From contig MCGO01000018.1 in NCBI GenBank assembly GCA_002104985.1, forward strand, positions 186,001-250,000: a stretch of 64,000 nt of DNA. Reading direction: 5' to 3'. Source of the stretch: Rhizoclosmatium globosum (lineage: Eukaryota; Chytridiomycota; Chytridiomycetes; Chytridiales; Chytriomycetaceae). The notes under the pieces are model-generated. The model was not told the origin of the DNA and made no database searches. It saw nothing but the letters and a program-made list of their open reading frames with translations. Positions 1,827-56,992 of the stretch are shown in pieces (the stretch's first letter is position 1; each line of letters begins with the position of its first letter). The position numbers and the translations under genes are program-made.

Positions 1827-4800
1827 TTATAGGGTTGATACGTCAAATTCCCCAAATGCGTCTCGGCAGAACTCAAACTTGATCCAGCCCAGTCCTTTAG
1901 TCAGAATGTCAGCCAGCATTTTTGTGTCTGGCATATGTCCAACTGTGATCAAATGTTGTCTAACCAGGTCTCGGAGGAACATATACTTTACATCCATGTG
2001 TTTGGTTTTATGGCGTTGTGCTCCTTCCTCCAAATTGAAGACTGTGCCCTGATTATCACACCAAAGTCGAGTGGGACCGTCTTGTGGGTATCCAAACCAT
2101 GTGAGCATGTTGCGAACCCACACTAGTTCTTTTGCCACAGAACATGCAGCAATAACTTCTGCTGATACAGTTGAGTCTGCAACAATGGGTTGACGTTTGC
2201 TGAAGCTCAGTACTGCTGATTTTCCTATTCGAACCACAGCCCCTGTGGTGGATCGTCTTGTTGCAGCATCGCCTGCCCAATCAGCATCCCCAAATCCTTC
2301 TAGTAGAAACTCCGCTGGGCTTTCTGAACGACGGTAGATAAGTCCATAGTTTCGGGTGCCATTCAAGTATTCCAGCAGTTCCTGAGCTCGTTCCCAGTGA
2401 ATTCGACGCGTTTTGGTTGTGTGTCGTGCAAGTTTACCTACAGCTTGCTGAATTGTGGGCCTGGTGATTGTGAGATATTGTAGCAGGCCAACAAGTCGAT
2501 AATAGTTCTTTCCTGTGAGGAACTCAGTATCTAAGGCAGACGGATCGTCTGTTGCGTCAAATTTGGAGTCGTCTGTCTGACGCCAAGCTGTACGGCGTTT
2601 TCCCGATTGATTCTCCAAGAATTCTGATAAGATTCCCTCAAGATACGCAGTTTGACTCATTGATGAAGCTCCATCTTTGAATTGAAATACTATGCTGATG
2701 AATTGGTCTACACATGGCTTAACAGTGAGTTCAAAGTGTTTTCCCAACTCCACTATCAACAAGTCCAATTCCTTCTCAACATCCTTGTCTGCTGCAAAGA
2801 AGAAATCATCTGCCCATGTGAGCACATAGACAAAATGAGTCCTGCCTTCCTTGATGATTTCCTTCTTGAAGACTAACGGCTCATGTGGATTCCGAGTCAT
2901 TCCTATTGATTCCAGAGCTCGATCTCGGTTTCGTTCCCACATGAGTGGAGCTTGTCTTTGACCATACATGGTCCGTAGTAACTCGAGAACTTTACCTCGG
3001 TCTTCTGGAGCCACTTCCATTCCCTGTGGGACTTTAACATACATGACCCTGTCCCGATCCGTAGTTAAATGTGCACCTTTTGCATCACACTGACGAGTAA
3101 CCATTCCACGCTCAGTGACTATTCGAGTGAGAATCTTCAGGGAGTTCATGTGTGGGGTACCTGAATATGTTTGGCTGAAGTCCACACCTTCTACTTGTCT
3201 CCTGCCATCCATACACAGGCGGGCTTTATATTGGGTTTCTCCAGTAATATCATTCTTCTTGATTTTGAGGACCCAAATAGTTCCCAGAGTGCGTGCACCT
3301 GGGGGAAGCCAAACCAGTTTCCAGACCTTAAGGCCCCAAAATTGCGAGAGTTCTTTCTCTATAGCAGCTCTCCATTTCTCATCTTTAAGCCCAGCTTGGA
3401 TTGATGGCCCATCAAGAACTGAGAGTGCTAGTCCATATCTTTGACCCACACCTGTCAGGAAACGAACTTCATCAAGTTCTACTTCATCAAAGTCTTCTTC
3501 TTGAAGTAATAACGCAGTGGCACATGAGGCAAATCCAGCTACTCCTTCTGACAGCCCAGCAAATGCTTCAAATGTATTCTGGGAACCACAGAATGCTGCC
3601 AGACCTTGTAGTGGAATAAAACTTTTATCCTTAGCATCATGCTTTGGTACAACAGGAGGAGACGAAGCATATGATGGGGTTGATTTGTTGTAGTGACGTG
3701 AGCGACGATCCTTGTTGGACTTTGGTGAAGACAGTGTTTCCATGCAGATTTCTTGGAAAGGGTCTTGAAAGGCTGCGGGAGTTCGCGCGAGCGCAGCGAG
3801 CGCGGCGGATTTTGCAGGCGGCGAAGACGGCGAACACACACCTGACGCAGCGGCAACGTTAGAAACGGATTTTGCAGGCGGCGAAGACGGCGAACACACA
3901 CCTGACGCAGCGGCAACGTTAGAAACGGATTTTGCAGGCGGCGAAGACGGCGAACACACACCTGACGCAGCGGCAACGTTAGAAACGGATTTTGCAGGCG
4001 GCGAAGACGGCGAACACACACCTGACGCAGCGGCAACGTTAGAAACGGATTTTGCAGGCGGCGAAGACGGCGAACACACACCTGACGCAGCGGCAACGTT
4101 AGAAACGGATTTTGCAGGCGGCGAAGACGGCGAACACACACCTGACGCAGCGGCAACGTTAGAAACGGATTTTGCAGGCGGCGAAGACGGCGAACACACA
4201 CCTGACGCAGCGGCAACGTTAGAAACGGATTTTGCAGGCGGCGAAGACGGCGAACACACACCTGACGCAGCGGCAACGTTAGAAACGGATTTTGCAGGCG
4301 GCGAAGACGGCGAACACACACCTGACGCAGCGGCAACGTTAGAAACGGATTTTGCAGGCGGCGAAGACGGCGAACACACACCTGACGCAGCGGCAACGTT
4401 AGAAACGGATTTTGCAGGCGGCGAAGACGGCGAACACACACCTGACGCAGCGGCAACGTTAGAAACGGATTTTGCAGGCGGCGAAGACGGCGAACACACA
4501 CCTGACGCAGCGGCAACGTTAGAAACGGATTTTGCAGGCGGCGAAGACGGCGAACACACACCTGACGCAGCGGCAACGTTAGAAACGGATTTTGCAGGCG
4601 GCGAAGACGGCGAACACACACCTGACGCAGCGGCAACGTTAGAAACGGATTTTGCAGGCGGCGAAGACGGCGAACACACACCTGACGCAGCGGCAACGTT
4701 AGAAACGGATTTTGCAGGCGGCGAAGACGGCGAACACACACCTGACGCAGCGGCAACGTTAGAAACGGATTTTGCAGGCGGCGAAGACGGCGAACACACA

Positions 4801-9314: not shown

Positions 9315-11084
9315 AAGCTTTGGGACTATACCAACCATACATGGACGCAGTTCGGCAGCTGGCTGTCATTAAGCATCACACTCATCATGGTACCTTCACT
9401 CTTGAGCTGGTTGAGGAGCTTGGAATAGGGCAGACTGTGTGTCCAGCTTGTACAGGTGGCGTTGATCCATGTGGTCCAGCTGCATTTGTGAGTTCGTTTG
9501 TTTATCAACAATGTTTCTTACGATTGTATTGCAGACAATGGATGGCTTTGAGTCAGCTAACAAGAAGTCCACGGAGCGCGGCGGAGGAGGGAGTCATGGG
9601 AGCTTTCCCTTTACGGAAGTGTACTTCAAAGAGCCAGAAGTTCGAGATGTTGTGGCTGATGCAAAGGCAGCCAAGCAACCTGTCAAGCCAAAACTTGGGT
9701 GTGACGCTCAACACAAGGCTGGAGGTACAAGCGGAGCAAAGACAGCAGGGAAAGACATTGACATGATCATTCACGTCGATTGCGCGGCACATTCTGTGGT
9801 CCAACGTGTTTATGGTGAGGACCTACTCATTGTTCTGTTTTGCTAATATTTGCACAAGATGTCAAAGGCGGTGAACGTTTGGTGTATGCGGATGATGTGA
9901 TCAACTGGGGTAAAGAAGCGTTCAAGAAAAGAGGATTTGTGCTGGGATACGACGTGGCTTGCAAAGAGCTGTCCCATCTTGACTTCTATGGCCTCCTTCA
10001 GTCTATTCTTGGCGCTATCCTGTTTATCTTATTCATTCCCGCCATGCACGTTTATGCTCATGGGAAAGACTGTCAGAGTCTTTTTAGTCCGCGGTTTTTG
10101 ATGGGGTTGGGGTTGACGATGGATGGGGAAGGGCATGAGCGAGTCAACAGTTGGTTATCTCGAATTATCGGCTTAACGCAGCGAGAGACTTTTGAAAACC
10201 GGCGGATGGATATAGTCTTGTTTCTGGAGTTCTTCAATTGGTCAAAAATCCGGAGGATGGTGTCATGGACACAGGAAAAGCTTTTAACCACGTTTGCAAG
10301 GCTTGCAGAAGTGAAGGAAGCTAATGGAAACCAGTGGTGTAAGATAGAACAAATCCGCTACAATGATGTAGTTGCGGCAATGACAGCTTTGAGACAGCGA
10401 TTGGTTGATCGTCAACCCAAGGATGTTCCATCAACAAAGGAAGACTTGCGACTGCAAATTGATCAGCTTGCTCGTTCAATTCTATCTATGGACAAACATC
10501 TAAGGTGTGCCCCTGGAACCAAAATGTCGAAACGACTTAATGCCGCTATAAATTCTACTTTTGTTGAGTTGTACAAGAAGCTTGACAAGTTGAATGGTAT
10601 TTTATCTTTACTTCTCAGCCTTACTGCTGATCATTTATTTCTAGCATTGGAGCCAAATAACCCGCCGCTCACATTTGCTCAGGTAAAAGCAGCACTTGTG
10701 CTGACACCTGTTGATCCGAGGCAATCTGATTTTGATTCATTGGTCACACTCTACTTTCGATATTGCGAGGATCTCTTTCACCATCAGAACTACTTGAAGA
10801 ATATGGTTGGATTCTATGAACAGCGCGAAAAGGAGTACTGGGCCGTTGTTGAAGAGAAAGTCGATGGTTGTGATTATCGATCCAAGGAAGCGTTGATGGG
10901 TTTGAGGCGGCGACGTATGCAAGTGGAGAACAAACACTCACAATCAGCAAAAGAAGCATTACATGTTTTTGATGTAGATGGGGAGTTTGCCTCTTTGTAC
11001 TTTATAAAGCATTTGAGTGAAATCAAGTTAGCCTTTCAGTCAAAAGACTCAGTATTAAGTCGCCAAAACATTAAGAGCATATAA
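9315..11084 (+). pseudogene. KDZ transposase gene, catalytic 3' part
   Basis: This continues the frame cut at 1,271: the upstream exon ends DVKDPKA and resumes LGLYQPYMDAV. A CPAC motif lies at about 9,446. Introns are likely at about 9,496-9,543 (GTGAGT..CAG) and about 9,812-9,862 (GTGAGG..AAG). The last ORF (9,863-11,084) has the KDZ core: GYDVACKE, then PAMHVYAHGKDCQ with SPRFLMGLG, and MDGEGHERVNSWL, the DGE/ER signature of the family. The C-terminus is Lys/Glu-rich and helical. One in-frame piece at about 10,595-10,645 might be another intron. The gene looks intact apart from the retroelement, so it was probably functional shortly before the insertion. Confidence 0.85.
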
Positions 11085-42849: not shown

Positions 42850-45170
42850 TCAGACTTGCGAGCGAGGGATCTCAGACGAAAACACTTGGCTGCTGTTTGT
42901 TGTATTTTGCTTTGAGGTTGCCGTCTTTTTGCTTGGTTTTGCTCGACTGCCCCCATTATTCCAGCCACTGTTCAACTCCTGGAAACAAGTGCGGCAATAA
43001 TACTTATCTGCTGCCATGTCTTTCTTACTCTCTCCTGTGCCAATAACAATGGTATCACCGTCACTTGCGGCCCACAACTAAAGACAGCGAGTCAGAAATG
43101 ACGCAAGCCAAGATACGAAACAAACCTCCATAACTTTTGGAATAAAATTGATTCCAATCACAGAAATAATTGTCAATGAGCAGATCAAGGATGTCATCAT
43201 AACTTGTGTCGACGGTAGTTTCAAACTGAGACCCAACCCAATCAATATCATCAACGACAGGGCCGTCACATACGCAGATGAATTGATGAGTCTTGCTTCG
43301 TTGTAACGAGAGTTCACATTTCTTGTCTCGAATCCAACATACACAGTTCCAAGAATACAAAGCGCGTTCGGTGTCAAGAGAACCCACATCCAAATATTGA
43401 TGTCCCTGCTTTGACAAATAGGCCACGTGCTACCATCGTCAGCAATATAATCAAGGATTTGGTACGGACTTTTGCGTGAAAAGGCAATCAGTAGCGCCAG
43501 GTTGACTAGAACTGGAATCCACGCAATGCATACCCAAGTCAAGTTGCTTGTCAGAGAACTGTGGAGTTTTGTTTTGGCACGATGGCGATGCGCACTATGT
43601 TTTAAGAGGTAAATTTAGCGGACATTATAGCATTATTAATAATGAAGGAGGATGCTCACAGTTTTTAGAAAAGATTGAGGAGTACAGTATACAAGTACCA
43701 GTGCTGAACAGAAATAAAGAAGCGGTACATGACGTCGGATTGGAAAATTGGAGGGAGTAGAGTACCATCCCAACCAACGCCACTGCAGCTCCGAACAAAT
43801 AATACATCAGAAACATAATGGAGCTCGATTTAAAGGCTGGGTGCTCCCGATTTACGAGGACAAAGAGGACAATCACCAAACAGAGGAGAATCCCCAAACT
43901 GCTCACATTTGTTCCCGCGGCTTTCACGGAAAATGGCATTTCTTTCGGAGGTATTGGCATTATTTCTGGATTCGGAAACGATATCTAATAAGGTTAAATT
44001 AATGGAAAATGAATCATAATTATGGTTAAACTCACAAGTAGCGTTCCAAGATTTGTACGGGCACCCGGGCCGCTTGTTTGGAGTAATGACTAAGTTTTGG
44101 AGGTCAGCGAGAAGACCCACAGGTCTTTTGAGACAGTGTTGTTTGAAAGAACACCTCCAAATACTATCAGTTCATTTGTTGTATTCGAAAAGCCAGCGCA
44201 GTGGTATGTCAATCCTGGAGGCTGGACTTTTGAAAGAGGAATGACAGGCTGCCAGTCAGACACGTCAAAGTTCAAGTTGAAGAGCTGGTTGCTTGTGGTT
44301 CCGAGAGCAGTTTGGCCACCGAAAATCAAAATATTGTTGTTTCCAAGGAATGTCATGGAGTGTGACTATACAAGAATCATTATTAACGTCTAGTAAATTT
44401 TAGTTAATACTAACATAAAGTGGCATGGGTCGTTTTCCAAATGCAATGAGAGGGGCCCATTCACCATGATTAAGTAAATATGGCGCAACATTCCCTTGAG
44501 ACAATGAAGGTAGAACTAGAGCTCCCACCTTCATTCTTGTCTTCACCAGTTGAATCAAATCGTTTACGGTCAGCTCAAGTATCTCGACAGGTGTCGTGCT
44601 TTGATCCACAAACGTGATGCTAACGTTTCCAGCAGAACAAGACAGTGCACTGGAACAAGGGGCAAAATCCACACCACCGTTGCTGCTGTACCTTTGATTT
44701 TCTCGGATACCATGATTTGACTCGCTTTGTCAAGGGCCATCACTGCAGATCCGAAAATGTAGTTTGAGTTTGGGTTTGACTTGTTCGCGAACGTCGTGAG
44801 AGACTCGTTCGTGTCAACACTAATTACCCAGATTTTCTGAGATGCGGCATAGAATATGGCGGCGGATCCAAGTCCACCTGCTGCACCCCAAAGAACATCG
44901 ACTCTTTCGGTCAGAAGCTCCTTCGCGAGTTGAATTCCCCACGTCTCGTTACTCTGTTTTGTTTGAATATATCAGTACAAAGTTTTACTCACTTAAAACC
45001 TTAGAGGCTCACCCAAGTTTCATCTTGAGCGATTCGGTATTCTACTTCGCAAATTGGGTTAACATATAAAGCTCCTCGCAAATAGGAATCATAGAAATTG
45101 TTTAAGAACCCCATATTAGCTACTGATCGTTAGAAAAAACCAGATTAGAATCGTTTAACGTACAAACTAC
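42850..45170 (-). pseudogene. Second Bmp-Kelch-7TM receptor gene, 3' part (broken)
   Basis: This is a paralogue of the receptor at 18,063, on the opposite strand. It retains the Bmp second half (DVLWGAAGGLGSAA), one to two Kelch repeats (44,090-44,356), all seven helices (43,960-43,080) and the CRTC tail ending at 42,850. Relative to the first copy, bases equal to 19,897-20,499 (603 nt) are missing, with the junction near 44,049. A Trp codon has become TAG at 44,090-44,092. The reading frame also shifts near 44,697, where part of the Bmp domain is deleted. The 5' part continues at 56,305-56,992 beyond the Gypsy element. Together these mark it as a pseudogene. Confidence 0.9.
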
Positions 45171-45652
45171 TGTGGGCGAGCGCCTTTTGCTCTCGCCTAT
45201 CCCTTTCTTCTTGTTTTACTGTCGGAGTTGTTTCTTTCTTTTGTTTTATCTCCAGTTCCATTTCAGTCTTATACGTGGTCTTTCCCTTTTCATTTTGTTG
45301 GACCGAGTTTTCTTGGTGTGTTGTTGGAAATTGGTGGTGCGAGGTTCAGCAGGTTCAAGTGGGATTCAAGACCACTCTATCTCCCCACTTTATTCTAAAT
45401 TACCCAATCTAAATAAATTGAAGAAGTTACCCAAAAACAGAGCAAGTGGTGTGGTCAAGTCGACCGAACCAACCTGCCACCCGCAAGACCTTCGAGTCTC
45501 AACGAGGTCACCCGCACCCTCGGGTCGCTCAGCTCGACCGCAGCCCGTGTTCTCGATCACTGTGCACCGCCATGGGGAAGGGGTACGAGTTACGAAGGCA
45601 CTATCGAGTGCTCCCCTCATGGTGGTGGATCGAGTTTCCCTACTGGCCCACA
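45171..45652 (+). repeat. Gypsy element 5' LTR
   Basis: 482 bp, matching 55,823-56,304 with an offset of 10,652. The termini TGTGGGC and GCCCACA are inverted repeats. Confidence 0.95.
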
Positions 45653-46932
45653 GACGCTGCCTTCTACCAGACTACTTGATCTGTTGTGGATCATCTACTA
45701 GCGATTTCGCGCGTTTCTCAAGGGTTTACACGCCGTTTTGGTCAAGTTGGAGAGGGTATCCACTTGGTATCCACTCCCGATCAAAGGCAATCGACGATCA
45801 AGCACTTGCTTCGATTCCTACCCACGCCTACGACCCTTCTTCTGGAAGTCCGAATCCCAGATATGCTGTTTTGGTTGATTTGGCATTGGGTTGGGTATCT
45901 ACGGATTTTCCCCTTGGTCTACAAGTGTTGCAGAGTCTCTTCGGACTCATATCGTCAACCTACAAACTCAGAATTTACGAGTACATTCCACGCGTTGTAT
46001 TGTAGTTTCAGAACGTGGTGTTACAGCGATGCGTCAGCCACACAAGCCTTGAGTTCCTTGATCGAGACGCTCCTCAAACTTGGACTTCTGACTTTGGCTA
46101 TGGCATTGCTACGGAATTAACCACGTCAATGATTCTTATTCTTGTTGGTCGCACGCTATCCAGTTCATTTCGCAAGTTGGTCACAAGCCTGGTGATGGAA
46201 GCCTCCGGATTCATTCCTGCCTCTGATACGGGAGAGTTGTACGTCTAATGTGCACATTACTAACTGCTTTTATTTCTGGATTCCGTCTGGTGTTGTGTTC
46301 TTGGTTGGACTAGATATCTACTTCCTTCTTTCCCGTTGATTCAATTCTGATGGATGTGCAGGAAGTTACAGACGCATCTAGCATTACCAGACCACTACCA
46401 CCGTTATGTTGTTGGATCTACCTTGGAGTTGTACCTACATTCAAGCCCGCTGTTTGAAAGAGTACAAGCCCATCAAGGCAATCCAGTGACAACTCTTGCT
46501 TTTGCGCTTCTTCCCTCATTGGAATCGGCTGGTTCTTTTGTTGTACGGGTTCTGTGATGGTTGTATGGTTTTGAGGGTTGTAATTAGGACCCTTTCCCCA
46601 TTTTATTTTTGCTTTTGCTTGCTTAAGTTCTATACTTTTGCTTTCTGCCTTTAGCTTTGGTTGTTTTGTTTTGTGGTACGGGATTGAGTGCTAGTGGCGT
46701 GTGGATTGGATTGCGTGGTGAGCGGGATACTGAGGAGATGGAAAATTTGTTGTCTCTTGGCGGGTCCCCCCGTTAAAAGGCAGCAAGTTTTCCAGATATT
46801 CCTTGCCTTTCCCACTCTTGCCGCGCAACTACCAGTTTTACGCGTCGCTAATGCTTAATCCAGGTACAAACCTCTTTTATCACAATACATTTCCCACTCT
46901 TGCCGCGCAACTACCAGTTTTACGCGTCGCTA
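45653..46932 (+). other. Untranslated leader of the Gypsy element
   Basis: About 1.28 kb between the 5' LTR and gag, with only short ORFs. It holds a 58-bp direct repeat (46,808-46,865 and about 46,889-46,946), the second copy of which covers the gag start, so one copy lies in the leader and one in the coding sequence. Confidence 0.6.
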
Positions 46933-49900
46933 ATGCTCAATCCAGGTGCTCTCGTCGCTAACGCTCTCAAGATCGAACAGTTCCATGGCTTCGACGTCGA
47001 CAAGTGGTCTGACTGGTTCAGACTCTACGTTACATACGCTAAAGCCATGGGTGGCTCCAATCAGGATCGCGAATGGGTTCTCCTCGCAATCCAGGGCGCT
47101 ACCATTCAGGACTCCGCGATCAGAGCTGATGCTACTGCGTGGGTTGCTGCTCAAGACGCTGCTGGTATCCCGGTTTCCTTGGAGGACTTCCTCCAACACA
47201 TGCGTCTCCAGTATGCGAGTGGTAACAAGAAGGTCACATCCTCCGACGTACTCTCTACTATCAAGAACTACGGTGTCTTCCCTCCCGAAAGTCCTCATTG
47301 GGGTAACGTTGTCGCTGCTGGAATTGCCAAACGGTCCAAGATGTCCAATCCTGGCCAGTTCCCTGACAACGAGCTTGTCAAGGCAGTGTTGGGTGAGATG
47401 CGATTCGATATGAACCAAGCGGTGCTTGCCACAATGGATGCTCAACGTAACCAAGTGGATCTTGCACGTGCCTCCCAAGGTGAACAGCCACTGGATCCTG
47501 ATCGTGAATACACGCTTGACGAGCTCCAGTCTGCCTTGGTTCGCTTTGTTAATCGTGCTGCCAATCTCCCTTTCCGCCAAGGCGCCGCTGAAACCCCTGT
47601 TACTCCTCCCGTTCCTGTACCTCCAGTTGCTACTGGATCTGCTCCTCCAGTCTTCCCTTCTTCAAATCTTCGTGTTCCTTCAAGCCAGTCACGTGCTGCC
47701 ACACCTGCATCTACAATCCAGCCAAATATCAATGAGCTTTCGGATTTGATGAGTAAATTGAGCATCTTGCTTCAGATGCCAACTTCTGAGGTGATCAACG
47801 GACTTGCCAATGTTGGGATTCTCGAAGCTGACGTTGATGTTGATGCGTTTGATCTCAAGAACATTATCTGTTGGTATTGTCACGAGCCTAACCATCGCCC
47901 CGGCACTTGCCCTCACCTTGATTCGGACATTAGAGGTGGGGCACCAGTCGCCATTGACGCCACTAAGAAACTCCGCTGGAAGATCATGAGTCTTTCCGGT
48001 ACAGGTGCTTTTGAGTGGGGTGAGTACGTTAAGGGTAGTAAGATGGGAGCCCGTGCTAACGTGATTAAAGAGAATCAAGATCCTGACTGGTTTTCCAAAG
48101 CCAGAGCCAAGGCACTTGCATCCAATACTGTCGGAGTCAACTACGGAAATGTTGAAGTCAGTATGCTATCATCTGTCTTTGACGAGAAGTTCCATTCTCC
48201 CCCAACCGAAGAGTCTACTTCCAAGTTCCATTCTCCAGTTCCACTGGCGCCTCTTGTAGCTGCGAAATCTTCTGTGAATTTCACTCCAGTTATAAGATCA
48301 ACCGTTGCTTCAGGTTCTACTAAGTCCGCTGTGCTGCGTCCTAAATTGGACATCTCCCGCGTTACACCCAAACAAGTTGATTGCGCTCTTGTTGCCATGG
48401 GTGTCACACAAGCGGGGGAAATGGTTCGCGTTAGTGATGTTCTTGACACTGTGATTGACTTGTTCTATACTGGCGAAGCTCAAGTTGCTCCAGCTATTCG
48501 CACTCGAGGAAACGTCACTATTCCTTGGCCTCCAGCGCCTGGGCAGGAAACCCTTCCAGTGAGGGAATCTCCACGTGACAAAGCTGCGCCTTATGCTGTT
48601 CCATTCCGTGAAGGTCCAAGACGATCAACTGAGTTGTCAGATTCTGATGAGGAAATGGACAACGCCCAACCAACAAATGCCGCACCCACTCCAAAAGTAG
48701 TTCCACCAACAACCGCTGTTTTGCCTGCCACTGCTCCTTCTGCCTCAACAAAGAAGCCTAAGAAGGAGCGGAAGAAGGCCACTGCTGCTCCCGCTCCCAC
48801 TTCTACCAAAGAAGAGCCCGAGCCAGTCGCACTCAGCCAAGAGCAATTAAATGCTCTTGTTACGGAGCTGTTGGAGGCGCAATGGGGTTTGGGCATTTCA
48901 CTTCGTTCTTTATTGGGTTCATCTGCTGAATTGCGAAAAGCTTTTGTAGAACGTCTACGCTCCCGTCGCACTTCCCCTGCTGCAAATGCTGATATTATCA
49001 AGGGTCTTAGCCTTACTCTTGATTCTTGGGGTTTTGAAGTCGCTGATGCTGAACTTGGTACGATTGAGTCTTGCGTATTGGAAGAATTTGGACCTTTCTG
49101 CGAAGACGGTACACCTGACGAACGTCCTGGTGAAACTACTGCTGACTACTTGGAACGTTTTAAACGCTACTATGAAGTTCTTGAAGCTGCCAAGAAAGCA
49201 AGTGGTTCTGGTTCTGGTTTGAATTCAGAACCAGAAGCTATGAAAGACGACCTTCCCAATTCTGCTAAAGACATCATGGCAGATTTTTCCGATTCTTTGT
49301 CTGCAGTCCTTGATGCTATGAACCACTATTATGATGTTGGTGATTCGTCTGCGTCGGAGTTTTCAAGAAACCTTTTGCGAAAGTTCCAGTCTGCCTCGTC
49401 CAAAGTTATGGACAAATTTGCACCACATACTTCTCGCTATGCTACGGTTCCCTCAGAAACGCCTCACCTTATGCCGGATCTTAATAACGCATACATTGAG
49501 TTAAGAGATTCAAGGCATCCGGCCCCCCGTGCTGGCAAGGTTATTGGCCCTAGTGTTGTTATTCAAGGTGGCATGCTTTCGGCGGATGACGTTAAGGATG
49601 TCATTGAAGCATTGCATTCTGAGTCGCGTCATTGGGATGCAAATTCCATTCCTTCATGCCTGAAACTCCCAGGTGCCGCGAGATTATCGAAGGAGCTTCA
49701 TTCTGCCGCGTCATTGTCATCCAGTTCTACGAGAACTTTGCCAATTGAAACACCAGCTTCGGCTTCCAGTTCTGGTCCATCCACCGGTCCTTTCCCTCAA
49801 TCTACCAATGCGAAAGGAAAGCAACGTGCTGTTCCCTTGGATGAACCTATTCGCGTTCCTGGAAGCAAAGGTTCCCCCGGTTTTGTTGCCCCTCGTAAGG

Positions 49901-51012
49901 TAGATGATTGCGGAAACGGCTACTACGATTTGACAGATGTTCTTATGGAGGATCCAACTCCAGAAACGGATTCTGACGTCGAAATTATTGCCGAGCCTCC
50001 CACTTACGTTGAAACCATTCGTTCTACTGCAAATCCTACGGGTTATGGGACTGGTTTGTCAACCAAACCTTGCTTCTACTGTAAAAAGGGACATCCACTG
50101 TCGTCATGCTTCTTGTTAGCAAAACATAAGTCTATGGGGCTTGCGGTGGGTATTGACGATAAAGGAAAGCTTCGTTGGCAATTGACTAAAGTTGATGGTG
50201 GTTGGGATTTTGGTCCTCTCGTTGAAGGTCATTCTAATGGAGCGGTGGAGGTGACGTTTTCTGGATCTCGTAATGCTGCGCCAAGGTCCTCAGAAGCTGC
50301 TACCAGTTCTGGCTCTTCTGGCAGTCCTGTGACTTCTCGTGGAATTGCAAGCCGACTTGGTAACGGGCCTGTGAGTAATGCACCTACTCGCCCTTCAATC
50401 TCGTCGCGTCTTGGTGCTCGTGCGCGCCGTGGAACTTCCTCCTATTTTGTGGAAATTGAAGTCCTTGCTAACGAGTTGGACGAGGGTGACACTGATGATG
50501 ACGATGGAGTTTCTAAGGATAATCGTGTACGATGTCTTGTAATTGCAACATCCCCACGTTGCATTGTACTTCTTGGTGGTCGTATTCTTGTTTCGGCTGT
50601 TCTTGATACTGGATCTCAAATTTGTACAATTGCGAGATCAATCCTGGACAAGATTGCGGATCTTTGCGGCGTTCATGACGCGTCTACGGTCAATATGCGT
50701 TCTGCACATGGAGATGTGCGTCAACTTGCTGGTCTCGCAGTGATTCCAGTCCATCTTCACGGATTCGTCTATCACGTTCAGTGTTGGATTGTTGATGACA
50801 CTGCCAAAGGAGTAAAGTGTCCTTACCAGATGCTTCTTGGACAACCGTTCATCCAGCTTGCTAGAATGCACATGTGGTGCGAGGAAAGCGGTGATATGTG
50901 GGCAAAAGTCTTCTGTCCTACTACTGATGCCGTCTTGCGTTTCAAGATTGCAGACCGTCTCCACCCAGACAATCAGTACAGCTTGCAAGGATTCCGTCTC
51001 TCTCGTGGTTAA
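46933..51012 (+). CDS. Gypsy Gag-protease polyprotein (about 1,359 aa)
   Basis: Start ATG 46,933; the frame extends 33 nt upstream from a TTG. A helical capsid-like N-terminus (IEQFHGFDVDKWSDWFRLYV) leads to a zinc knuckle CWYCHEPNHRPGTC near residue 312. The long middle is Ser/Pro/Ala-rich with acidic parts. A second knuckle CFYCKKGHPLSSC lies near residue 1,047. A retropepsin follows, with VLDTGSQICTI near residue 1,224 and YQMLLGQPF downstream. The two knuckles are each followed by a similar KLRW block, suggesting an internal duplication. The ORF is about three times longer than a usual Gypsy Gag. It ends at TAA 51,012, and Pol begins in another frame about 345 nt later. Confidence 0.9.
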   Translation: MLNPGALVANALKIEQFHGFDVDKWSDWFRLYVTYAKAMGGSNQDREWVLLAIQGATIQDSAIRADATAWVAAQDAAGIPVSLEDFLQHMRLQYASGNKKVTSSDVLSTIKNYGVFPPESPHWGNVVAAGIAKRSKMSNPGQFPDNELVKAVLGEMRFDMNQAVLATMDAQRNQVDLARASQGEQPLDPDREYTLDELQSALVRFVNRAANLPFRQGAAETPVTPPVPVPPVATGSAPPVFPSSNLRVPSSQSRAATPASTIQPNINELSDLMSKLSILLQMPTSEVINGLANVGILEADVDVDAFDLKNIICWYCHEPNHRPGTCPHLDSDIRGGAPVAIDATKKLRWKIMSLSGTGAFEWGEYVKGSKMGARANVIKENQDPDWFSKARAKALASNTVGVNYGNVEVSMLSSVFDEKFHSPPTEESTSKFHSPVPLAPLVAAKSSVNFTPVIRSTVASGSTKSAVLRPKLDISRVTPKQVDCALVAMGVTQAGEMVRVSDVLDTVIDLFYTGEAQVAPAIRTRGNVTIPWPPAPGQETLPVRESPRDKAAPYAVPFREGPRRSTELSDSDEEMDNAQPTNAAPTPKVVPPTTAVLPATAPSASTKKPKKERKKATAAPAPTSTKEEPEPVALSQEQLNALVTELLEAQWGLGISLRSLLGSSAELRKAFVERLRSRRTSPAANADIIKGLSLTLDSWGFEVADAELGTIESCVLEEFGPFCEDGTPDERPGETTADYLERFKRYYEVLEAAKKASGSGSGLNSEPEAMKDDLPNSAKDIMADFSDSLSAVLDAMNHYYDVGDSSASEFSRNLLRKFQSASSKVMDKFAPHTSRYATVPSETPHLMPDLNNAYIELRDSRHPAPRAGKVIGPSVVIQGGMLSADDVKDVIEALHSESRHWDANSIPSCLKLPGAARLSKELHSAASLSSSSTRTLPIETPASASSSGPSTGPFPQSTNAKGKQRAVPLDEPIRVPGSKGSPGFVAPRKVDDCGNGYYDLTDVLMEDPTPETDSDVEIIAEPPTYVETIRSTANPTGYGTGLSTKPCFYCKKGHPLSSCFLLAKHKSMGLAVGIDDKGKLRWQLTKVDGGWDFGPLVEGHSNGAVEVTFSGSRNAAPRSSEAATSSGSSGSPVTSRGIASRLGNGPVSNAPTRPSISSRLGARARRGTSSYFVEIEVLANELDEGDTDDDDGVSKDNRVRCLVIATSPRCIVLLGGRILVSAVLDTGSQICTIARSILDKIADLCGVHDASTVNMRSAHGDVRQLAGLAVIPVHLHGFVYHVQCWIVDDTAKGVKCPYQMLLGQPFIQLARMHMWCEESGDMWAKVFCPTTDAVLRFKIADRLHPDNQYSLQGFRLSRG

Positions 51013-51356
51013 GTTGCGTTTTTGGACATTCTAGCTTTTCATTTCCTTCTGTAGTTGTGTTCTCTTGCCATTTCTTACCTTCATTTTCTATCTCTGGTTT
51101 TTATCGCATGGGCGGTTTCTCCATTTCTTTTTTTTGGTCATTAGCTTGTTGCTGTTTTGGTGGAAATTTTGCAGGTTCTTCAAACCTGATCGGAAGTTGA
51201 TCAAAAACACAAAAAGTAAAAGACTTGTACCCTACACCCTCTCCACCTGGACTGACTCTCTTGAGTACTACTTGTGCTACATTCATTGCGGCAAGTCCCT
51301 GTCCTCACTACTGGTTTCAATTGTCTCCCTGGTATTAGCTTGTATTGGTGCGCTCG

Positions 51357-54300
51357 ATGGTATCCAGCAAGCAAAGTGGATACCCTCTACAGGTTTGCAG
51401 CTCCAGTTCTGATGGTGCTACTGGCTGGCAAACAGAGTCATGGGACTCATACTACCATTCTGTGGACGCGGCCAATGCTGCTGCCTCCAACTCTGTCACT
51501 TCTGGCTCTGGTTGGGTATCCAACGTGTCTGATATTTGTTATCCAAGAGCTACCACACGTCATCTTCGAAGATTGGGTGCGATCGCACAAGACGAGTCTG
51601 TCTCCCAAGTAGTAACCTTCACGCACGACGCTTCCGCCTACTCTGTGCTGCAGATTGCGGATACCCTCTCACGTGACGGCTATGTTGATTCTTGGTTGGA
51701 TTTTGAAGTGTTGCAGCATTGTATCTCGCGGTTGGATGCTACGTATCAATGGAATGCCGGAATCGCTATTGACGTTCATACTATGTACAAACCTGTCTCG
51801 CGTAAGGTACGCCCAGCTACGGAGATGCTTCCTGACGGGGCTGCTCCACTTGGTTGGGATGCTCCTGACCGGCAAGTTGATCCTATTGGTCTTTCTGACG
51901 AGCGTATGGACACACTCTGCTCCGATGCCGACTGGCTTTCCCCAACAGAACTGGTGCTATTGAAATCTATGCTTCGAGAAGAAGCTGCTGCGTTTTCATT
52001 CACTATTGGTAGCCGTGGTCGCGTCAAGCCAGAGTTCTGCGAGCCTGTCAAGATTCATACTGTGGAACACAAGTGTTGGAAGTTCAAGCCACGTAAGATT
52101 CCATACCAACAAATGGAAGCTTTAATCAAGCTGCTACGCGAGAAGCTTGATGCCAACATTATGGAGCCTTGTTTTGGACCATATGCTGCCAGTTTCTTCC
52201 TTGTTCCTAAAAAGGACGGCTCACTTCGTTTCATCCAGGATTTACAACCGTTGAATCGAGTCACTATTCGCGATGCTGGTATTCCACCGGCAGCGGAGGA
52301 AGTCATTAATGAATATACAGGTCTGGCCATTTACTCTCCACTTGATTGCCACTCTTGGTATGACCAGTTCACCTTGGATCCATCTAGTCGTGACCTAACT
52401 GCTATTGCGACTCCTCTTGGTTTGATGCGGATGGTAACACTTCCGCAAGGGTGGACTAATTCGGTTGCCATTGCTCAACGTGCTTCGGTCAAGATTCTCC
52501 AGCCGTTTGTTCCGCATCTGGTCAGACCCTTTGTGGACGACTATGTTGTGAAAGGCCCTAAGACTCATGAAGCTGATTCTACTCTTGTGATGCCAGGAGT
52601 TCGCAAGTTTGTTGCCGATCATATTGGTAACCTGCGTTCCATCCTTCAACGTGTTCAAGAGTCTGGAGCTACGCTATCAGGACTGAAGTCTCGTTTTTGT
52701 AGTCGCAGCTGTGAAGTTTTGGGTCACCTTTGTGCTTCTGATGGTCGCCGACCTGGTTCCAAGGTCAAGAGACTCACTAATTGGGGTCCACTGCAAACAG
52801 TTACAGATATTCGGTCGTTCCTTGGTCTTGCCAACGTTTTCCGCAAGTATATTCCTCGGTTTGCACTTCGGGCACATACGCTCTTTTCCATGCTTCGGAA
52901 GGGCGCGGATCTTGAAGCGAATAGCGAAGCCATTGAATCCGAGAAGCAGGATTTGTGTGCCGCGCTGACAGCTTATCCAGTCCTTCGCGCTATTCGATAT
53001 GATGTGGGAGCAGGTAACAGGTTTGTCACTGTTGACAGCTCGCCAATTGGATGGGGAGCATGGCTTGGTCAAGAGGAAGACGGTGATCGCCATGCGGTCA
53101 TATTTGTTTCTGGACGATTTAGTGATGTTGAGGCGCGTATGCCGCAACACAAACGGGAGATCCTTGGATGTTTGAATGCGCTGAAGGCGCTCCACATTTA
53201 CATTTGGGGATCGGAGTTTGTTTTGGAAACGGATGCTAAAGCTGTGGTGGGGTCAATTGATAAGGTTGCAACACTCGACGAGACTTGCAAGCGGTGGCTT
53301 CTGGGAATTCGATCCTACCATCCAGTCGCAATCCTCCATGTTCATGGAAAAGACAACAAGGTTTCTGACGCTCTTAGTCGCGCTCCAGACTTCTGGAACG
53401 ACTCGGATGAAGAATCAGATTTGGAGTCACATGTGGACAATGTTCTTGGTCTTGTGGTTGAGGTGGACGTCACAACTCTATCTGTTATCAGTTGGAATGT
53501 CAATTCTATCCGAAGTGCTGCCAAGAAGATGGGCGAGTTGTTTGGGCTGTTTCTTCTGAAACATGACATCATCTTTTTGCAAGAAACACGCATGGGTCGA
53601 GCAAGTTTCGACAAGTTGCAGGGACTGGATTACAAGGCAACACACTTTGCCTATTATTCTGACTATCCTGTGGAGTGTGATGACAATGGGGTCCCACTGA
53701 AAGGCGCATATGGTTCTGGTATGAACGGTGTTGCTATTCTTGTTCGCAAGGGGTTGTTTGCTTCGGACTATGCGGACGAAGCACACAATTGCTTTTCTGG
53801 TTGGTCTGTTACGCTGATGGAAGGTCGGTTTATCGCAATCAAGTTTGGCGCAATAATTCTTACGTCCATCTACTTCCCTGCGGCAATTGCTGGAAGAGAG
53901 TTCCGTGTTCCCTACAAGCTTCGATTCATGGAAGCGGCTCTACAGGAGCTCAAGTCTTACAGGGATCGTGGATTAAAAGTGATTGCTGGATGTGATTGGA
54001 ATGTGTCGCGTCTGGATATTGACATTCATCCCGCGCTGATTCGTCTTATTGGATCAGGATTCTCTCCTGTTGAGAGAAATCTACTTGGCCAGTTGTGCTT
54101 CGAGTTTCAAGATTCTTTCCGCGTTTGTCACCAAAATGTTGTTTCATATACAACCTGGTGGCATCCAGACAGACGTCAGAATCAAGGTTTCCGCTTTGAT
54201 GGCATTCTTGTTGACCTGTCTTTGCTTGTTTTGGACGCATCCCATGTACACGAAGTTCGAGGCTCAGATCATTGTCCTGTCTTTGCAAGAATTCAGCTTC

Positions 54301-55772
54301 CTTTCCCATCTGTTGAGGTTTTGAAGTGGTCCTGGGACGACTGTGAAAAGTGGTGGGATTCAGAACTTTATGATGAAGATGTGGTGGACGTGAAAAATAC
54401 TATCAAGAAGCTTGGATTGTCTGGTCGTCTCGCTGCCGTCTACTGGTTTTTGGTTCTTGGCAAACTCCCTCCTGGAATGGATGCTGAATCTGCGGAAGCC
54501 ATCTTACGTCAAAGCTCTCTTTACCTTGTTCAAGACGATCTTCTCTTCCGAAAGCCTCCAGACAACCAGAATAGTCCCCCGCGACGTGTTGTTTGTCATC
54601 GAGACGAAAAAGACTTTATTATCAAGCAATCCCATGAAGGTTTTGGTGGAGGACATCGGAGTGTGCATGGAACTGTTGCCAAGATTTCTGCACGATACTG
54701 GTGGCAAGGCATCTGGGAGGAAGCTGCTGCTCACATCAAGTTTTGTGACCCGTGTCAGCGTCATAATCCCATCCGCTACTATGAACCGCTTGAAGTGCAA
54801 AAGGATTCACTTTTCCATGGTTTGTTCCGCCGTTGGTATGTTGACCTTGTCGCAATTGAAGGAACATACCTTGCACTCTACAGCGAAGAAATTTCTGGCT
54901 GGCTCGAAGCAGGCTACTTCAAGGGAAAGTCTGCTGCGCCCATTGTCCGCGACTTTGAACGCCAAGTTATTTCCCGATATGGAGTACCGGTTGAGGTTGT
55001 TATTGATGGAGGGGAACTGAGTGGGAGCGCATTGGCTGATAAGGCCAAAGAGCTCCTGTTCAACTGTCGCATCGTTATGGCCTATGGACAACAAGCAAAT
55101 GGTAAAGTTGAACGCGCAAACGTCCCCATTGTCAGTGCCCTAGCCAAGGTTTGTGGCAGCAAACCTCGCAGGTGGGTCAAACACATTTGGGCTGCACTTT
55201 GGGCTTCTCGTATCACTGTGAGCCGAACCACTGGAATGAGTCCCTATGAGCTCCTATTTGGTCAAGAGCCAGTTCTGCCAATGGAGTTTGTAATTGAGTC
55301 TTACGCAGTGATCCATTGGGAATCTGTTACTTCGACCGAAGATTTGATTGCAGCTCGAATTCGAATTCTTGAACGACGTTCTGCTGACATTGAACTTGCT
55401 CGTGAACGGATTATTGTTGCTCGAGAGCAACGCGCCAAGCAGTTTAATCGCAACCACCGTCTACGTCCTGAGTCGGAACTCATTGCTGAAGGCGACCTGG
55501 TTATTGTGCGTGATTCTAAGTTGGATAATATGTTAGGAGCCAAAATGCGTTGGAGATATTGTGGGCCATACTGGGTGGTCCGCATTGGGCACAATGCTTA
55601 CTTCTTGTCTGAAATGGATGGTACACACTTGAAGAAGGCGGTTCACGGTTCTCGTGTTAAGCTTTACCACAAGAAAGGAACCACTGAAGACTTCCCAACC
55701 TCTCTTTTGCAGGAAGAAGAGGAACTATTGGGTGTTGAAGTTGGGTTGTTTGAGTACGAGCGTTTGTACTAA
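51357..55772 (+). CDS. Gypsy Pol: RT, RNase H, exonuclease III-type AP endonuclease, integrase (about 1,471 aa)
   Basis: One open frame without stops. RT: VPKKDGSLRFIQDLQPLNRV, LDCHSWYDQF, LPQGWTNS and FVDDY (Asp 394/395). RNase H: VTVDSSPIGWGAWL, HKREILGCLNAL, ETDAKAV and DNKVSDALSR. Then residues about 706-985 are a full AP-endonuclease domain. Integrase follows with an HHCC finger (SHEGFGGGHRSVHG..CDPCQ), the catalytic set WYVDLVAI (Asp 1163), VIDGGE and NGKVERAN, and a GPY/F-like YCGPYWVV near the end. The ATG at 51,357 is the first; how Pol is expressed after the Gag stop is not evident. The extra endonuclease makes this architecture unusual for an LTR element. Confidence 0.93.
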   Translation: MVSSKQSGYPLQVCSSSSDGATGWQTESWDSYYHSVDAANAAASNSVTSGSGWVSNVSDICYPRATTRHLRRLGAIAQDESVSQVVTFTHDASAYSVLQIADTLSRDGYVDSWLDFEVLQHCISRLDATYQWNAGIAIDVHTMYKPVSRKVRPATEMLPDGAAPLGWDAPDRQVDPIGLSDERMDTLCSDADWLSPTELVLLKSMLREEAAAFSFTIGSRGRVKPEFCEPVKIHTVEHKCWKFKPRKIPYQQMEALIKLLREKLDANIMEPCFGPYAASFFLVPKKDGSLRFIQDLQPLNRVTIRDAGIPPAAEEVINEYTGLAIYSPLDCHSWYDQFTLDPSSRDLTAIATPLGLMRMVTLPQGWTNSVAIAQRASVKILQPFVPHLVRPFVDDYVVKGPKTHEADSTLVMPGVRKFVADHIGNLRSILQRVQESGATLSGLKSRFCSRSCEVLGHLCASDGRRPGSKVKRLTNWGPLQTVTDIRSFLGLANVFRKYIPRFALRAHTLFSMLRKGADLEANSEAIESEKQDLCAALTAYPVLRAIRYDVGAGNRFVTVDSSPIGWGAWLGQEEDGDRHAVIFVSGRFSDVEARMPQHKREILGCLNALKALHIYIWGSEFVLETDAKAVVGSIDKVATLDETCKRWLLGIRSYHPVAILHVHGKDNKVSDALSRAPDFWNDSDEESDLESHVDNVLGLVVEVDVTTLSVISWNVNSIRSAAKKMGELFGLFLLKHDIIFLQETRMGRASFDKLQGLDYKATHFAYYSDYPVECDDNGVPLKGAYGSGMNGVAILVRKGLFASDYADEAHNCFSGWSVTLMEGRFIAIKFGAIILTSIYFPAAIAGREFRVPYKLRFMEAALQELKSYRDRGLKVIAGCDWNVSRLDIDIHPALIRLIGSGFSPVERNLLGQLCFEFQDSFRVCHQNVVSYTTWWHPDRRQNQGFRFDGILVDLSLLVLDASHVHEVRGSDHCPVFARIQLPFPSVEVLKWSWDDCEKWWDSELYDEDVVDVKNTIKKLGLSGRLAAVYWFLVLGKLPPGMDAESAEAILRQSSLYLVQDDLLFRKPPDNQNSPPRRVVCHRDEKDFIIKQSHEGFGGGHRSVHGTVAKISARYWWQGIWEEAAAHIKFCDPCQRHNPIRYYEPLEVQKDSLFHGLFRRWYVDLVAIEGTYLALYSEEISGWLEAGYFKGKSAAPIVRDFERQVISRYGVPVEVVIDGGELSGSALADKAKELLFNCRIVMAYGQQANGKVERANVPIVSALAKVCGSKPRRWVKHIWAALWASRITVSRTTGMSPYELLFGQEPVLPMEFVIESYAVIHWESVTSTEDLIAARIRILERRSADIELARERIIVAREQRAKQFNRNHRLRPESELIAEGDLVIVRDSKLDNMLGAKMRWRYCGPYWVVRIGHNAYFLSEMDGTHLKKAVHGSRVKLYHKKGTTEDFPTSLLQEEEELLGVEVGLFEYERLY
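53472..54311 (+). other. AP endonuclease (exonuclease III family) domain within Gypsy Pol
   Basis: Metal-dependent EEP-superfamily motifs occur in the right order: SWNVNSIR (Asn 714), FLQETR (Glu 743), an ILTSIYFP strand, GCDWNV (Asp 880, Asn 882), RFDGILVD, and GSDHCPV (Asp 971, His 972). ExoIII-type enzymes use this Asn, Glu, Asp/Asn and Asp-His set to cut DNA 5' to abasic sites. In retroelements the domain is known from LINE-type elements, where it nicks the target. Here it is in frame between RNase H and the integrase zinc finger, with every key residue present. Activity is inferred, not shown. Confidence 0.9.
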
Positions 55773-55822
55773 TCCACCCGCAGTCCTCGTCGGGGTTACC
55801 ATTTTCTTTTGGTTTGTCAGCC

Positions 55823-56304
55823 TGTGGGCGAGCGCCTTTTGCTCTCGCCTATCCCTTTCTTCTTGTTTTACTGTCGGAGTTGTTTCTTTCTTTTGTTTTA
55901 TCTCCAGTTCCATTTCAGTCTTATACGTGGTCTTTCCCTTTTCATTTTGTTGGACCGAGTTTTCTTGGTGTGTTGTTGGAAATTGGTGGTGCGAGGTTCA
56001 GCAGGTTCAAGTGGGATTCAAGACCACTCTATCTCCCCACTTTATTCTAAATTACCCAATCTAAATAAATTGAAGAAGTTACCCAAAAACAGAGCAAGTG
56101 GTGTGGTCAAGTCGACCGAACCAACCTGCCACCCGCAAGACCTTCGAGTCTCAACGAGGTCACCCGCACCCTCGGGTCGCTCAGCTCGACCGCAGCCCGT
56201 GTTCTCGATCACTGTGCACCGCCATGGGGAAGGGGTACGAGTTACGAAGGCACTATCGAGTGCTCCCCTCATGGTGGTGGATCGAGTTTCCCTACTGGCC
56301 CACA
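55823..56304 (+). repeat. Gypsy element 3' LTR
   Basis: 482 bp, with no differences noticed from the 5' LTR. The sequence just before it (GGTTTGTCAGCC) is not a strong purine tract. Confidence 0.95.
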
Positions 56305-56992
56305 CTACTCCCACAGAATTCCTCTTGGTGAGAGATCCTGCCGCCACACCAGCCAGAAATAATGCCTGGTCGTAGTTGAATGATGCTCCCTATTATTCAA
56401 TTTTAGCCGCGATCTAGTGAAAACTGGACACATACATAAAGGTTTGGAGGATCATTGGGAGAAACAGCAGCTGGCACTTAAAATTAAGACCACAGAAATT
56501 CAAAATTCATGAGGATTTGCACCTGATACTGTCGAAAAAGTCACATTCGGAAATCTCACTGCCAGAAGCCGTGTATATTCCATGGGCTGGTTATCCATTA
56601 CCAAAACCTGAACAATCGACGGATCTGAGAGGATAACACGTCAACAGCCGTTAAGTGGGGATCAGTGATAAAAAAAAAGATACCGGCTTGAATTAACTTT
56701 GTGAAAGATGACACCAGTTCCATTGCGGTTCCAGAAGCAATTAGCCACTTGCATGTATAATCAGGGACATTGAGTACGGCTTGTTGGCATCCATTCCATC
56801 CAATTAAGTCGTACGCGTCAGTTGGGACTTAATGACTATCAATATGAAACTATCAGAACACAAAAAAACCTCACCTGTGTTAGGTGGAATAGCTGCGTTA
56901 ATACCAACTCCGATGGTAGATATTGCTGTGACAGGATGATATCTCAGTAGGAACCCTAGGAAAAAAGATCCCATCATCATTATTTCTGACAA
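56305..56992 (-). pseudogene. Second Bmp-Kelch-7TM receptor gene, 5' part
   Basis: The minus strand from 56,992 starts with a signal-peptide-like MMMGSFFLGFLLRYHPV and TIGVGINAAIPPNTG, parallel to the first exon of the 18,063 gene. Further exons read AYDLIGWNGCQQAVLNVPDY, IVQVLVMDNQPMEYTRLLAV, PNDPPN and GASFNYDQALFLAGVAAG, with introns at the same places as in the intact copy. The last exon stops at the Gypsy target site and resumes at 45,170. This shows the element split one gene. Confidence 0.88.

What the first reader, a model, noticed from the sequence alone, without database searches (positions are those of the whole stretch)
53472..54311. AP endonuclease domain built into the Pol of a Gypsy LTR retrotransposon
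An ExoIII-type domain with all its key residues (Asn 714, Glu 743, Asp 880/Asn 882, Asp 971/His 972) sits in one open frame between RNase H and the integrase zinc finger. LTR elements integrate with integrase; AP endonucleases are the tool of LINE-type elements. A retroelement with both could cut abasic sites, process termini or choose its target differently. I know of no described Gypsy lineage with this order, though I cannot search.
Basis: partly seen in the sequence, partly recalled or inferred. Interest (0 to 1): 0.93.

Follow-up and report, generated by a model that had tools for sequence, protein, structure and literature searches.

The report
DNA-repair nuclease inside Gypsy retrotransposons
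In this genome, most of the Gypsy-type LTR retrotransposons found carry, in or beside their polymerase gene, a copy of a DNA-repair enzyme that normally cuts damaged DNA, and two separate Gypsy lineages have it, which suggests that it does useful work during their copying.

Summary
Confirmed, and larger than reported. The window holds a Gypsy-type element with identical LTRs, a 4-bp target duplication and a 1477-codon pol frame read RT-RNase H-EEP-integrase. The extra domain scores above the curated cut-off for the ExoIII/APE1 repair family (131 bits; cut-off 99) and keeps the eight catalytic positions checked. It is a repair-type enzyme, not an L1-like LINE endonuclease (profile E: ExoIII 4e-40, L1 about 1e-4). 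It is no assembly chimera: three copies at three sites have their own target duplications and open pol frames. In this genome 48 of 60 Gypsy-type integrase loci have such a domain or its remnant nearby. Two Gypsy lineages carry it (RT tree rejects one clade, p = 5e-46); in one lineage it sits either between RNase H and integrase or at the N-terminus of pol. Substitutions show purifying selection. The insertion footprint is the integrase's, so a LINE-like role is unlikely. The best-supported, still inferred role is upkeep of the element's cDNA: cutting abasic or uracil sites and cleaning 3' ends. Prior print: Exo_endo_phos noted as sporadic in animal Kuafuorterviruses. No relative with the domain was found outside this genome, in collections poor in eukaryotes.

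The parts
45167..45170 (.). 5' target-site duplication, CTAC
45171..45652 (+). 5' LTR, 482 bp, TGTGGG...CCCACA, identical to the 3' LTR
46852..51012 (+). gag ORF (1386 codons, stop to stop) with zinc-knuckle-like motifs read by eye
50575..50850 (+). aspartic protease domain (PF13650) at the C-terminus of the gag ORF
   Evidence: just over the curated cut-off (24.4 vs 24.3 bits)
51339..55772 (+). pol ORF, 1477 codons stop to stop; first ATG 51357
52203..52727 (+). reverse transcriptase (PF00078), FVDD catalytic motif
52944..53318 (+). RNase H (PF17917/PF17919); D566, E607, D632 and, just beyond, D677 present (assignment by eye)
53487..54272 (+). ExoIII/APE-type endonuclease domain (PF03372; TIGR00633 131 bits); N720 E749 Y845 D886 N888 D954 D977 H978
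54612..54770 (+). integrase zinc-binding domain (PF17921)
54843..55112 (+). integrase core, D1169, D1223, E1258 (read by eye; Pfam rve not reached)
55823..56304 (+). 3' LTR, identical to the 5' LTR
56305..56308 (.). 3' target-site duplication, CTAC

Best explanation
A Ty3/Gypsy-type LTR retrotransposon whose Pol has acquired a cellular-type ExoIII/APE1 repair nuclease, fused directly after RNase H. The element copies its RNA with its own RT and RNase H and inserts the double-stranded cDNA with its own integrase (read from anatomy and insertion footprint). The extra domain is kept by selection (shown by substitution patterns). Its most likely job, inferred, is to act on the element's own cDNA in the particle or before integration: it cuts at abasic (perhaps also dU) sites left by dUTP misincorporation, deamination or base loss, and removes blocked, mismatched or RNA-derived 3' ends, so that the RT can refill and the integrase meets clean 3'-OH ends. 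It would be the cutting counterpart of the dUTPase that some retroviruses carry between RT and integrase.
For: Domain order and intact residues. ExoIII/APE family by curated profile, by PDB sequence profile (ExoIII 4e-40, APE1 about 1e-30, L1 endonuclease 1e-4 to 3e-4), by pairwise scores and by fold (Foldseek 3e-20 to Methanosarcina ExoIII, then Neisseria AP endonuclease, Mth212 uridine endonuclease, APE1). All 35 over-cut-off ExoIII-type domains of the 67 matches in this genome lie beside a Gypsy-type integrase match. Two Gypsy lineages carry it. Purifying selection: dN/dS 0.041 in C113 vs C384 (dS 0.147); pN 0.10 against pS 0.79 in C43 vs C214; pol codon differences of the two other window-family copies 11 silent to 3 replacing, and 13 to 3. 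Integrase-type insertion: three copies with TSDs CTAC, GTAG, TTAC and LTR pairs with 0 of 482 mismatches. A slot like that of the dUTPase placed between RT and integrase in some retroviruses (PMC2427051, passages).
Against: No activity was measured. No relative with the domain was found outside this genome, and the nearest outside Pol, P0001, lacks it, so not every relative needs it. Other facts that fit less well: the C383:78.6 kb/C301 copies score only 68-69 bits against the cut-off of 99, with dN/dS 0.36 on few changes; a class A copy (C384b) has lost the domain; one of the three replacing changes in the C383 copy of the window family lies in the domain (residue 921); host APE1 in HIV-1 particles was proposed to degrade edited viral DNA rather than mend it (PMC2427051); and no glycosylase or dUTPase partner was listed in the pol frames that I scanned.
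Confidence: 0.5

Rival explanations
1. The domain processes replication intermediates in a normal cycle: removes the minus- or plus-strand primer remnant, trims untemplated 3' nucleotides or acts as a second RNase H-like nuclease before integration.
For: It is fused directly behind RNase H. ExoIII/APE enzymes have 3'-exonuclease, 3'-phosphatase and RNase H-like side activities (established knowledge, recalled). The window family shows no TGG-type tRNA primer site in the first 30 nt after the 5' LTR and no purine tract next to the 3' LTR, so its priming may be unusual.
Against: The four RNase H acidic residues are present in the window Pol (by eye), so a substitute is not called for. The class A locus C79 does have TGG one base behind the LTR and a short purine run (GGAAAAGGG) close to the 3' LTR, yet carries the domain. 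In class C the domain lies far from RNase H.
Confidence: 0.25
2. The domain nicks or selects the genomic target, as the endonuclease of LINEs does, and helps or replaces the integrase.
For: Same fold superfamily as LINE endonucleases; catalytic residues kept. Two of three TSDs in the window family are reverse complements of each other (CTAC, GTAG).
Against: TG...CA ends, full-length window-family copies, 4-bp TSDs in 4 of 4 insertions read, integrase residues present (by eye), sequence kinship to repair enzymes rather than LINEs. Four insertions are too few to speak for or against a target motif.
Confidence: 0.12
3. Counter-defence: the domain acts on host-modified or host-edited element DNA (deamination, RIP-like or methylation-linked damage) or on host DNA to favour expression.
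For: Gypsy elements elsewhere have captured DNA methyltransferase (KnitGypsy-Dnmt3, PMC5890265, passages) and an m6A demethylase (PMC9289625, passages).
Against: Nothing in the sequence points to a modified base as substrate; the host's defence is unknown.
Confidence: 0.1
4. Passenger or artefact: a captured gene piece without function, or an assembly chimera.
For: Some copies are broken or lack parts (stops inside C135 and C87; C112; C384b without the domain).
Against: Three independent insertions with open pol frames, 48 of 60 integrase loci, two lineages, purifying selection.
Confidence: 0.03

Closest known systems
Ty3/Gypsy (Metaviridae) LTR retrotransposons
   Same: LTRs, 4-bp TSD, gag, protease, RT-RNase H-integrase order
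   Different: An ExoIII/APE domain in pol, between RNase H and integrase or at the pol N-terminus
Kuafuorterviruses (PMC11673190, passages and outline seen)
   Same: LTR retroelements in which Exo_endo_phos was noted, as sporadic and perhaps host-derived
   Different: Animal lineage with IADD/VADD/LADD RT motif; the window family has FVDD. The position and kind of their domain are not in the passages seen and could not be compared
dUTPase-bearing retroviruses: dUTPase upstream of protease, between RT and integrase, or after integrase (PMC2427051, passages)
   Same: Accessory uracil-handling enzyme taken up several times, in one arrangement between RT and integrase
   Different: dUTPase prevents uracil; ExoIII/APE cuts after base loss. 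No homology (recalled)
Cellular ExoIII / APE1 (TIGR00633)
   Same: Profile score over cut-off, active site, fold
   Different: Here a Pol domain of a mobile element; identity to 36 aligned ExoIII-like proteins 29-37%
LINE endonucleases (L1; C46 of this genome)
   Same: EEP superfamily, in a retroelement Pol
   Different: Sequence kinship is far weaker, and insertion is by integrase with LTRs
KnitGypsy-Dnmt3 (PMC5890265, passages) and orchid AlkB Gypsy (PMC9289625, passages)
   Same: Gypsy elements with a captured host enzyme kept by selection or shown active
   Different: Other enzymes; the orchid domain is in an additional ORF

Membership tests
Ty3/Gypsy LTR retrotransposon | Long terminal repeats with TG...CA ends and short TSD | tested here: met
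   482-bp LTRs, 0 mismatches between the pair in each of 3 copies; TSDs CTAC, GTAG, TTAC
Ty3/Gypsy LTR retrotransposon | Order RT, RNase H, integrase in pol | tested here: met
   integrase core residues read by eye, Pfam rve not reached in the window copy
Ty3/Gypsy LTR retrotransposon | RT groups with Gypsy RTs | tested here: inconclusive
   classes B and C with P0001 form a lineage of their own (100/100) set against all other Gypsy-like rows; no Copia, BEL, retrovirus or Kuafuortervirus RT was in the tree; Pfam RT_RNaseH and Integrase_H2C2 match
ExoIII/APE (TIGR00633 xth) | Curated profile score | tested here: met
   131 bits, cut-off 99.05; 35 of 67 matches in the genome pass it, but the C383:78.6 kb/C301 class C copies do not
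ExoIII/APE (TIGR00633 xth) | Catalytic residues (APE1 N68, E96, Y171, D210, N212, D283, D308, H309; APE1 numbers recalled) | tested here: met
ExoIII/APE (TIGR00633 xth) | Fold | tested here: met
   mean pLDDT 80.7, pTM 0.85; Foldseek 3e-20; the alignment was made of ExoIII-like relatives
ExoIII/APE (TIGR00633 xth) | AP-endonuclease activity | not testable with these tools
   needs a nicking assay
LINE endonuclease | Closer to LINE endonucleases than to ExoIII/APE1 | tested here: not met
   (L1 1e-4 to 3e-4 vs ExoIII 4e-40); positive control C46. The EEP trees do not settle it
LINE endonuclease | Target-primed insertion footprint (no LTRs, 3' tail, variable TSD; recalled) | tested here: not met
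Kuafuorterviruses | RT motif IADD/VADD/LADD (as stated in PMC11673190) | tested here: not met
   window FVDD; C368 FVDD, C383 FIDD, C146 LQDD
Kuafuorterviruses | RT places within that lineage | not tested
   no Kuafuortervirus sequence was in hand

The most novel reading that the evidence does not exclude
Gypsy elements of this organism run a modified replication cycle in which an element-encoded DNA endonuclease of the AP/uridine type (Mth212-like) is needed: it cuts first-strand cDNA at abasic or dU sites, in the window family perhaps to make primers where no purine tract or tRNA site is seen. The need was strong enough for two Gypsy lineages to take up the enzyme separately and for one to move it within Pol.
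Probability: 0.12. Interest if true: 0.92.

Novelty: new variant of a known kind. Interest (0 to 1): 0.74.

Why it matters
[quoted passage not shown] An ExoIII/APE repair nuclease kept in two Gypsy lineages, at two Pol positions, at most Gypsy-type integrase loci of one genome would show that base damage or 3'-end state of cDNA is a limiting step for these elements, and gives a natural system to test it: families in one genome with and without the domain. It also means that an Exo_endo_phos match near an RT is not proof of a LINE, which bears on automatic transposon annotation.

Tried and rejected
Assembly chimera: rejected, three copies at distinct sites. LINE donor: spoken against by profile and pairwise scores, but not by the trees. 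In the EEP tree the 12 Gypsy rows and the 5 LINE-labelled rows lie together on one side of a branch against the 31 ExoIII/APE rows (89/88, not starred); a tree with the 5 LINE-labelled rows held together fits no worse (p = 0.70), and in a tree without three long rows B/C plus ExoIII/APE as one side is not rejected (p = 0.33). Of the four LINE-labelled rows of this genome only C46 is verified; C212:228 kb, C212:299 kb and C90:10 kb are presumed, having no Gypsy domain nearby. One of these, C212:299 kb, has Mth212 and ExoIII as its best solved-structure matches (1.5e-5; no L1 endonuclease at E up to 1) and 85 bits to TIGR00633, so not every non-Gypsy EEP here is L1-like. One capture for all Gypsy copies by descent: rejected by the RT tree (p = 5e-46). 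The EEP tree alone does not reject one clade (p = 0.62), so exchange of one captured domain between elements is not excluded; against it, the window domain scores 47-97 bits with each of 31 ExoIII/APE rows but 21-44 with class A domains, and the C43 domain 50-81 with those rows but 23-45 with B/C domains. C as the source of B by nesting: the EEP tree draws C paraphyletic, but C as one clade is not rejected (p = 0.19) and the RT tree has C as one clade. Host source: the only host ExoIII-family gene that I recognised resembles APN2/APE2 (C113:178.5-180.3 kb, by eye); the domain is nearer to ExoIII/APE1 than to APE2, so the donor is unknown. Relatives elsewhere: protein searches (14 hits, none listed with PF03372; ExoIII-like proteins of 250-500 aa, best 120 of 2896 listed; none of 1194 candidates) and three IMG/VR scans gave none with the architecture; those collections hold few eukaryotes, so this is weak evidence of absence. 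Print: ten paper searches and passages of 13 opened papers gave no Gypsy with this domain; most listed papers were not opened, lists 21, 94 and 95 were cut, and subscription papers, bioRxiv and Repbase were not searched. Protease in class C: not found with a simple motif.

Full report
What is there. The window is contig C90:186001-250000 of an unnamed 56.9-Mb genome. Two 482-bp LTRs (45171-45652, 55823-56304) are identical, end in TG...CA and are flanked by the 4-bp repeat CTAC. Between them lie a gag ORF with an aspartic protease match at its end (just over the cut-off) and a 1477-codon pol ORF: RT 289-463, RNase H 536-660, Exo_endo_phos 717-978, integrase zinc finger 1092-1144. Eight positions that correspond to the APE1 active site (numbers recalled) are present. 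Integrase D1169, D1223, E1258 and RNase H D566, E607, D632, D677 were assigned by eye; Pfam's integrase core model was not reached in this copy.

Not an assembly accident. The domain's DNA occurs three times in the genome. The copies on C387 and C383 have their own TSDs (GTAG, TTAC), LTR pairs with 0 of 482 mismatches, and the same open pol frame. Their pol differs from the window's by 11 silent and 3 replacing codons, and by 13 and 3; one replacing change, residue 921 in the C383 copy, lies in the domain. The C383 copy also has a length difference upstream of pol that I did not trace. These are independent recent insertions with an integrase-type footprint.

What kind of nuclease. TIGR00633 (ExoIII) scores 131 bits over a cut-off of 99. 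A profile of six Gypsy domains finds ExoIII at 4e-40, APE1 at about 1e-30, APE2 at 9e-19 and L1 endonuclease at 1e-4 to 3e-4. A verified LINE of the same genome, C46, behaves the other way round (L1 4e-12, ExoIII 1e-3; 42 bits to TIGR00633). Pairwise, the window domain scores 47-97 bits with each of 31 ExoIII/APE rows and 12 bits or less with 5 LINE-labelled rows. An AlphaFold2 model (mean pLDDT 80.7; its alignment was of ExoIII-like relatives) matches Methanosarcina ExoIII, Neisseria AP endonuclease, the uridine endonuclease Mth212 and APE1. The best-scoring proteins listed in a 5.8-billion-protein collection are ExoIII-like, those with names from bacteria or archaea (7996 candidates scored, best 120 of 2896 listed), 29-37% identical to the window domain in the 36 aligned. 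The EEP trees leave the deep branching open (told under Tried and rejected).

How common. PF03372 gives 83 matches in the genome, Integrase_H2C2 60, RT_RNaseH 65. By position (using 60 of the 65 RNase H rows) 39 rows read RNase H-EEP-integrase, 4 EEP-RNase H-integrase, 5 EEP-integrase, and 35 have neither nearby (LINEs, host genes and fragments, not sorted one by one). Some loci give two rows. Of the 60 integrase loci 46 have an EEP match within 5 kb on the same strand; TIGR00633 adds two decayed ones, C189 and C55, making 48 of 60. Of 67 TIGR00633 matches 35 pass the cut-off, and all 35 lie beside an Integrase_H2C2 match. Counts are lower bounds by the tool's own note.

Three builds. A: one gag-pol frame with RT-RNase H-EEP-integrase (C43, C130, C401); relatives are C214, C113 and C257, whose integrase is in another frame. 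B: the window type, separate gag and pol (window, C13, C397). C: EEP at the N-terminus of the frame that holds RT, RNase H and integrase (C368, C383:78.6 kb, C146; C347 and C411 of this kind have broken frames). The RT tree (32 rows) puts B, C and the outside protein P0001 in one branch (100/100) and A in another part; one clade of A+B+C is rejected (p = 5e-46). In the EEP tree (48 rows) B and C form one branch (97/89) and A another (100/99); A+B+C as one clade is not rejected (p = 0.62). Pairwise scores put both A and B/C nearer to ExoIII/APE than to each other, which favours two uptakes. B plus C without P0001 as one RT clade is not rejected (p = 0.29). The simplest reading is uptake in the ancestor of B and C, a later move within Pol, and a second uptake (less likely a transfer) in A. 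P0001, the nearest outside Pol (31% identical over the matched 39% of the query), has no such domain listed or seen in its 1731-aa frame. The A-like copy C384b, with no EEP match, has an RT 99% identical to C257, so it is a recent loss, not the ancestral state. Gypsy clades without the domain also exist here (C388/C264; C365/C338; C77).

Selection (Nei-Gojobori). C113 vs C384: EEP dN/dS 0.041 at dS 0.147. C43 vs C214: EEP pN 0.10, RT 0.075, integrase 0.059, linkers 0.18 and 0.135, gag part 0.31, with silent sites near saturation (pS 0.79 in EEP). C130 vs C257: EEP pN 0.18 with pS 0.84. Window vs C397: EEP pN 0.315, pS 0.82; window vs C13: 0.38, 0.79. C383 vs C301 is weaker: 0.36 on few changes. 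Eleven of eleven aligned Gypsy domains keep the eight catalytic positions.

How it may work. Integration is by integrase: 4-bp TSDs and TG...CA ends in 4 of 4 insertions read (window, C387, C383 of the window family; C79 of class A with TSD AACT). The domain is therefore accessory. Its kind and its place directly behind RNase H suggest action on the cDNA: cutting abasic or uracil sites and cleaning 3' ends. Some retroviruses carry a dUTPase, in one arrangement between RT and integrase, and a review reads this as repeated capture (PMC2427051, passages). This step is inferred. The same review reports a proposal that host APE1 in HIV-1 particles degrades edited viral DNA, which shows that such an enzyme can also harm the element.

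What is known. Ten paper searches gave no Gypsy element with this domain in the listings and opened passages (open-licence PMC only). Prior notice: Exo_endo_phos 'only present sporadically in Kuafuorterviruses' (PMC11673190, passages and outline). 'LTR Retrotransposons in Fungi' (PMC3248453, passages) mentions complex elements with many additional domains from multiple insertions; the passages do not name this one. Gypsy elements with other captured enzymes are known. Two further fungal papers that the searches raised use AP endonuclease for a host gene and for LINEs (PMC11540331, PMC4112212, passages).

Limits. 

Noticed in passing
window 45653-45700 and 55770-55822: No TGG-type tRNA primer site in the first 30 nt after the 5' LTR, no complement of 8 nt or more of that stretch in the LTR, and no purine tract next to the 3' LTR (nearest AGGAAGAAGAGGAA about 110 nt upstream); priming of the window family is unexplained.
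   Followed up: partly
window 51013-51338: About 330 nt between the gag stop and the opening of the pol frame, with an intron-like acceptor TTTTGCAG near 51174; how pol is expressed is open. Gaps of about 110-305 nt also lie between pol and the frame upstream of it in C397, C13 and C301.
   Followed up: no
window 46808-46947: Direct repeat of 58 nt, starts 82 nt apart, at the start of the gag frame.
   Followed up: no
window 1827-7118 (-): Long ORF (1763 codons) with Copia-type RT (RVT_2).
   Followed up: no
window 9840-11084 (+): ORF with a KDZ transposase match.
   Followed up: no
L025 (C146), class C pol: RT motif LQDD instead of the usual Y/F-x-DD, in a long open frame with EEP, RNase H and integrase; catalytic state unclear.
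   Followed up: partly
G000:C114:11513-12310 and C113:335395-336177: These class A domains lie in single open frames of 3901 and 3609 codons.
   Followed up: no
L061 (C368:91700-93600, minus strand): A second, fragmentary and inverted class C domain lies about 3.7 kb from the class C element's own EEP domain (C368:92074-92514 against 96187).
   Followed up: no
L049 (C212:299500-300450), also C69 and C380: Non-Gypsy EEP domains that are nearer to ExoIII/Mth212 than to L1 endonuclease (C212:299 kb tested; scores of 70-85 bits to TIGR00633); their elements were not identified.
   Followed up: partly
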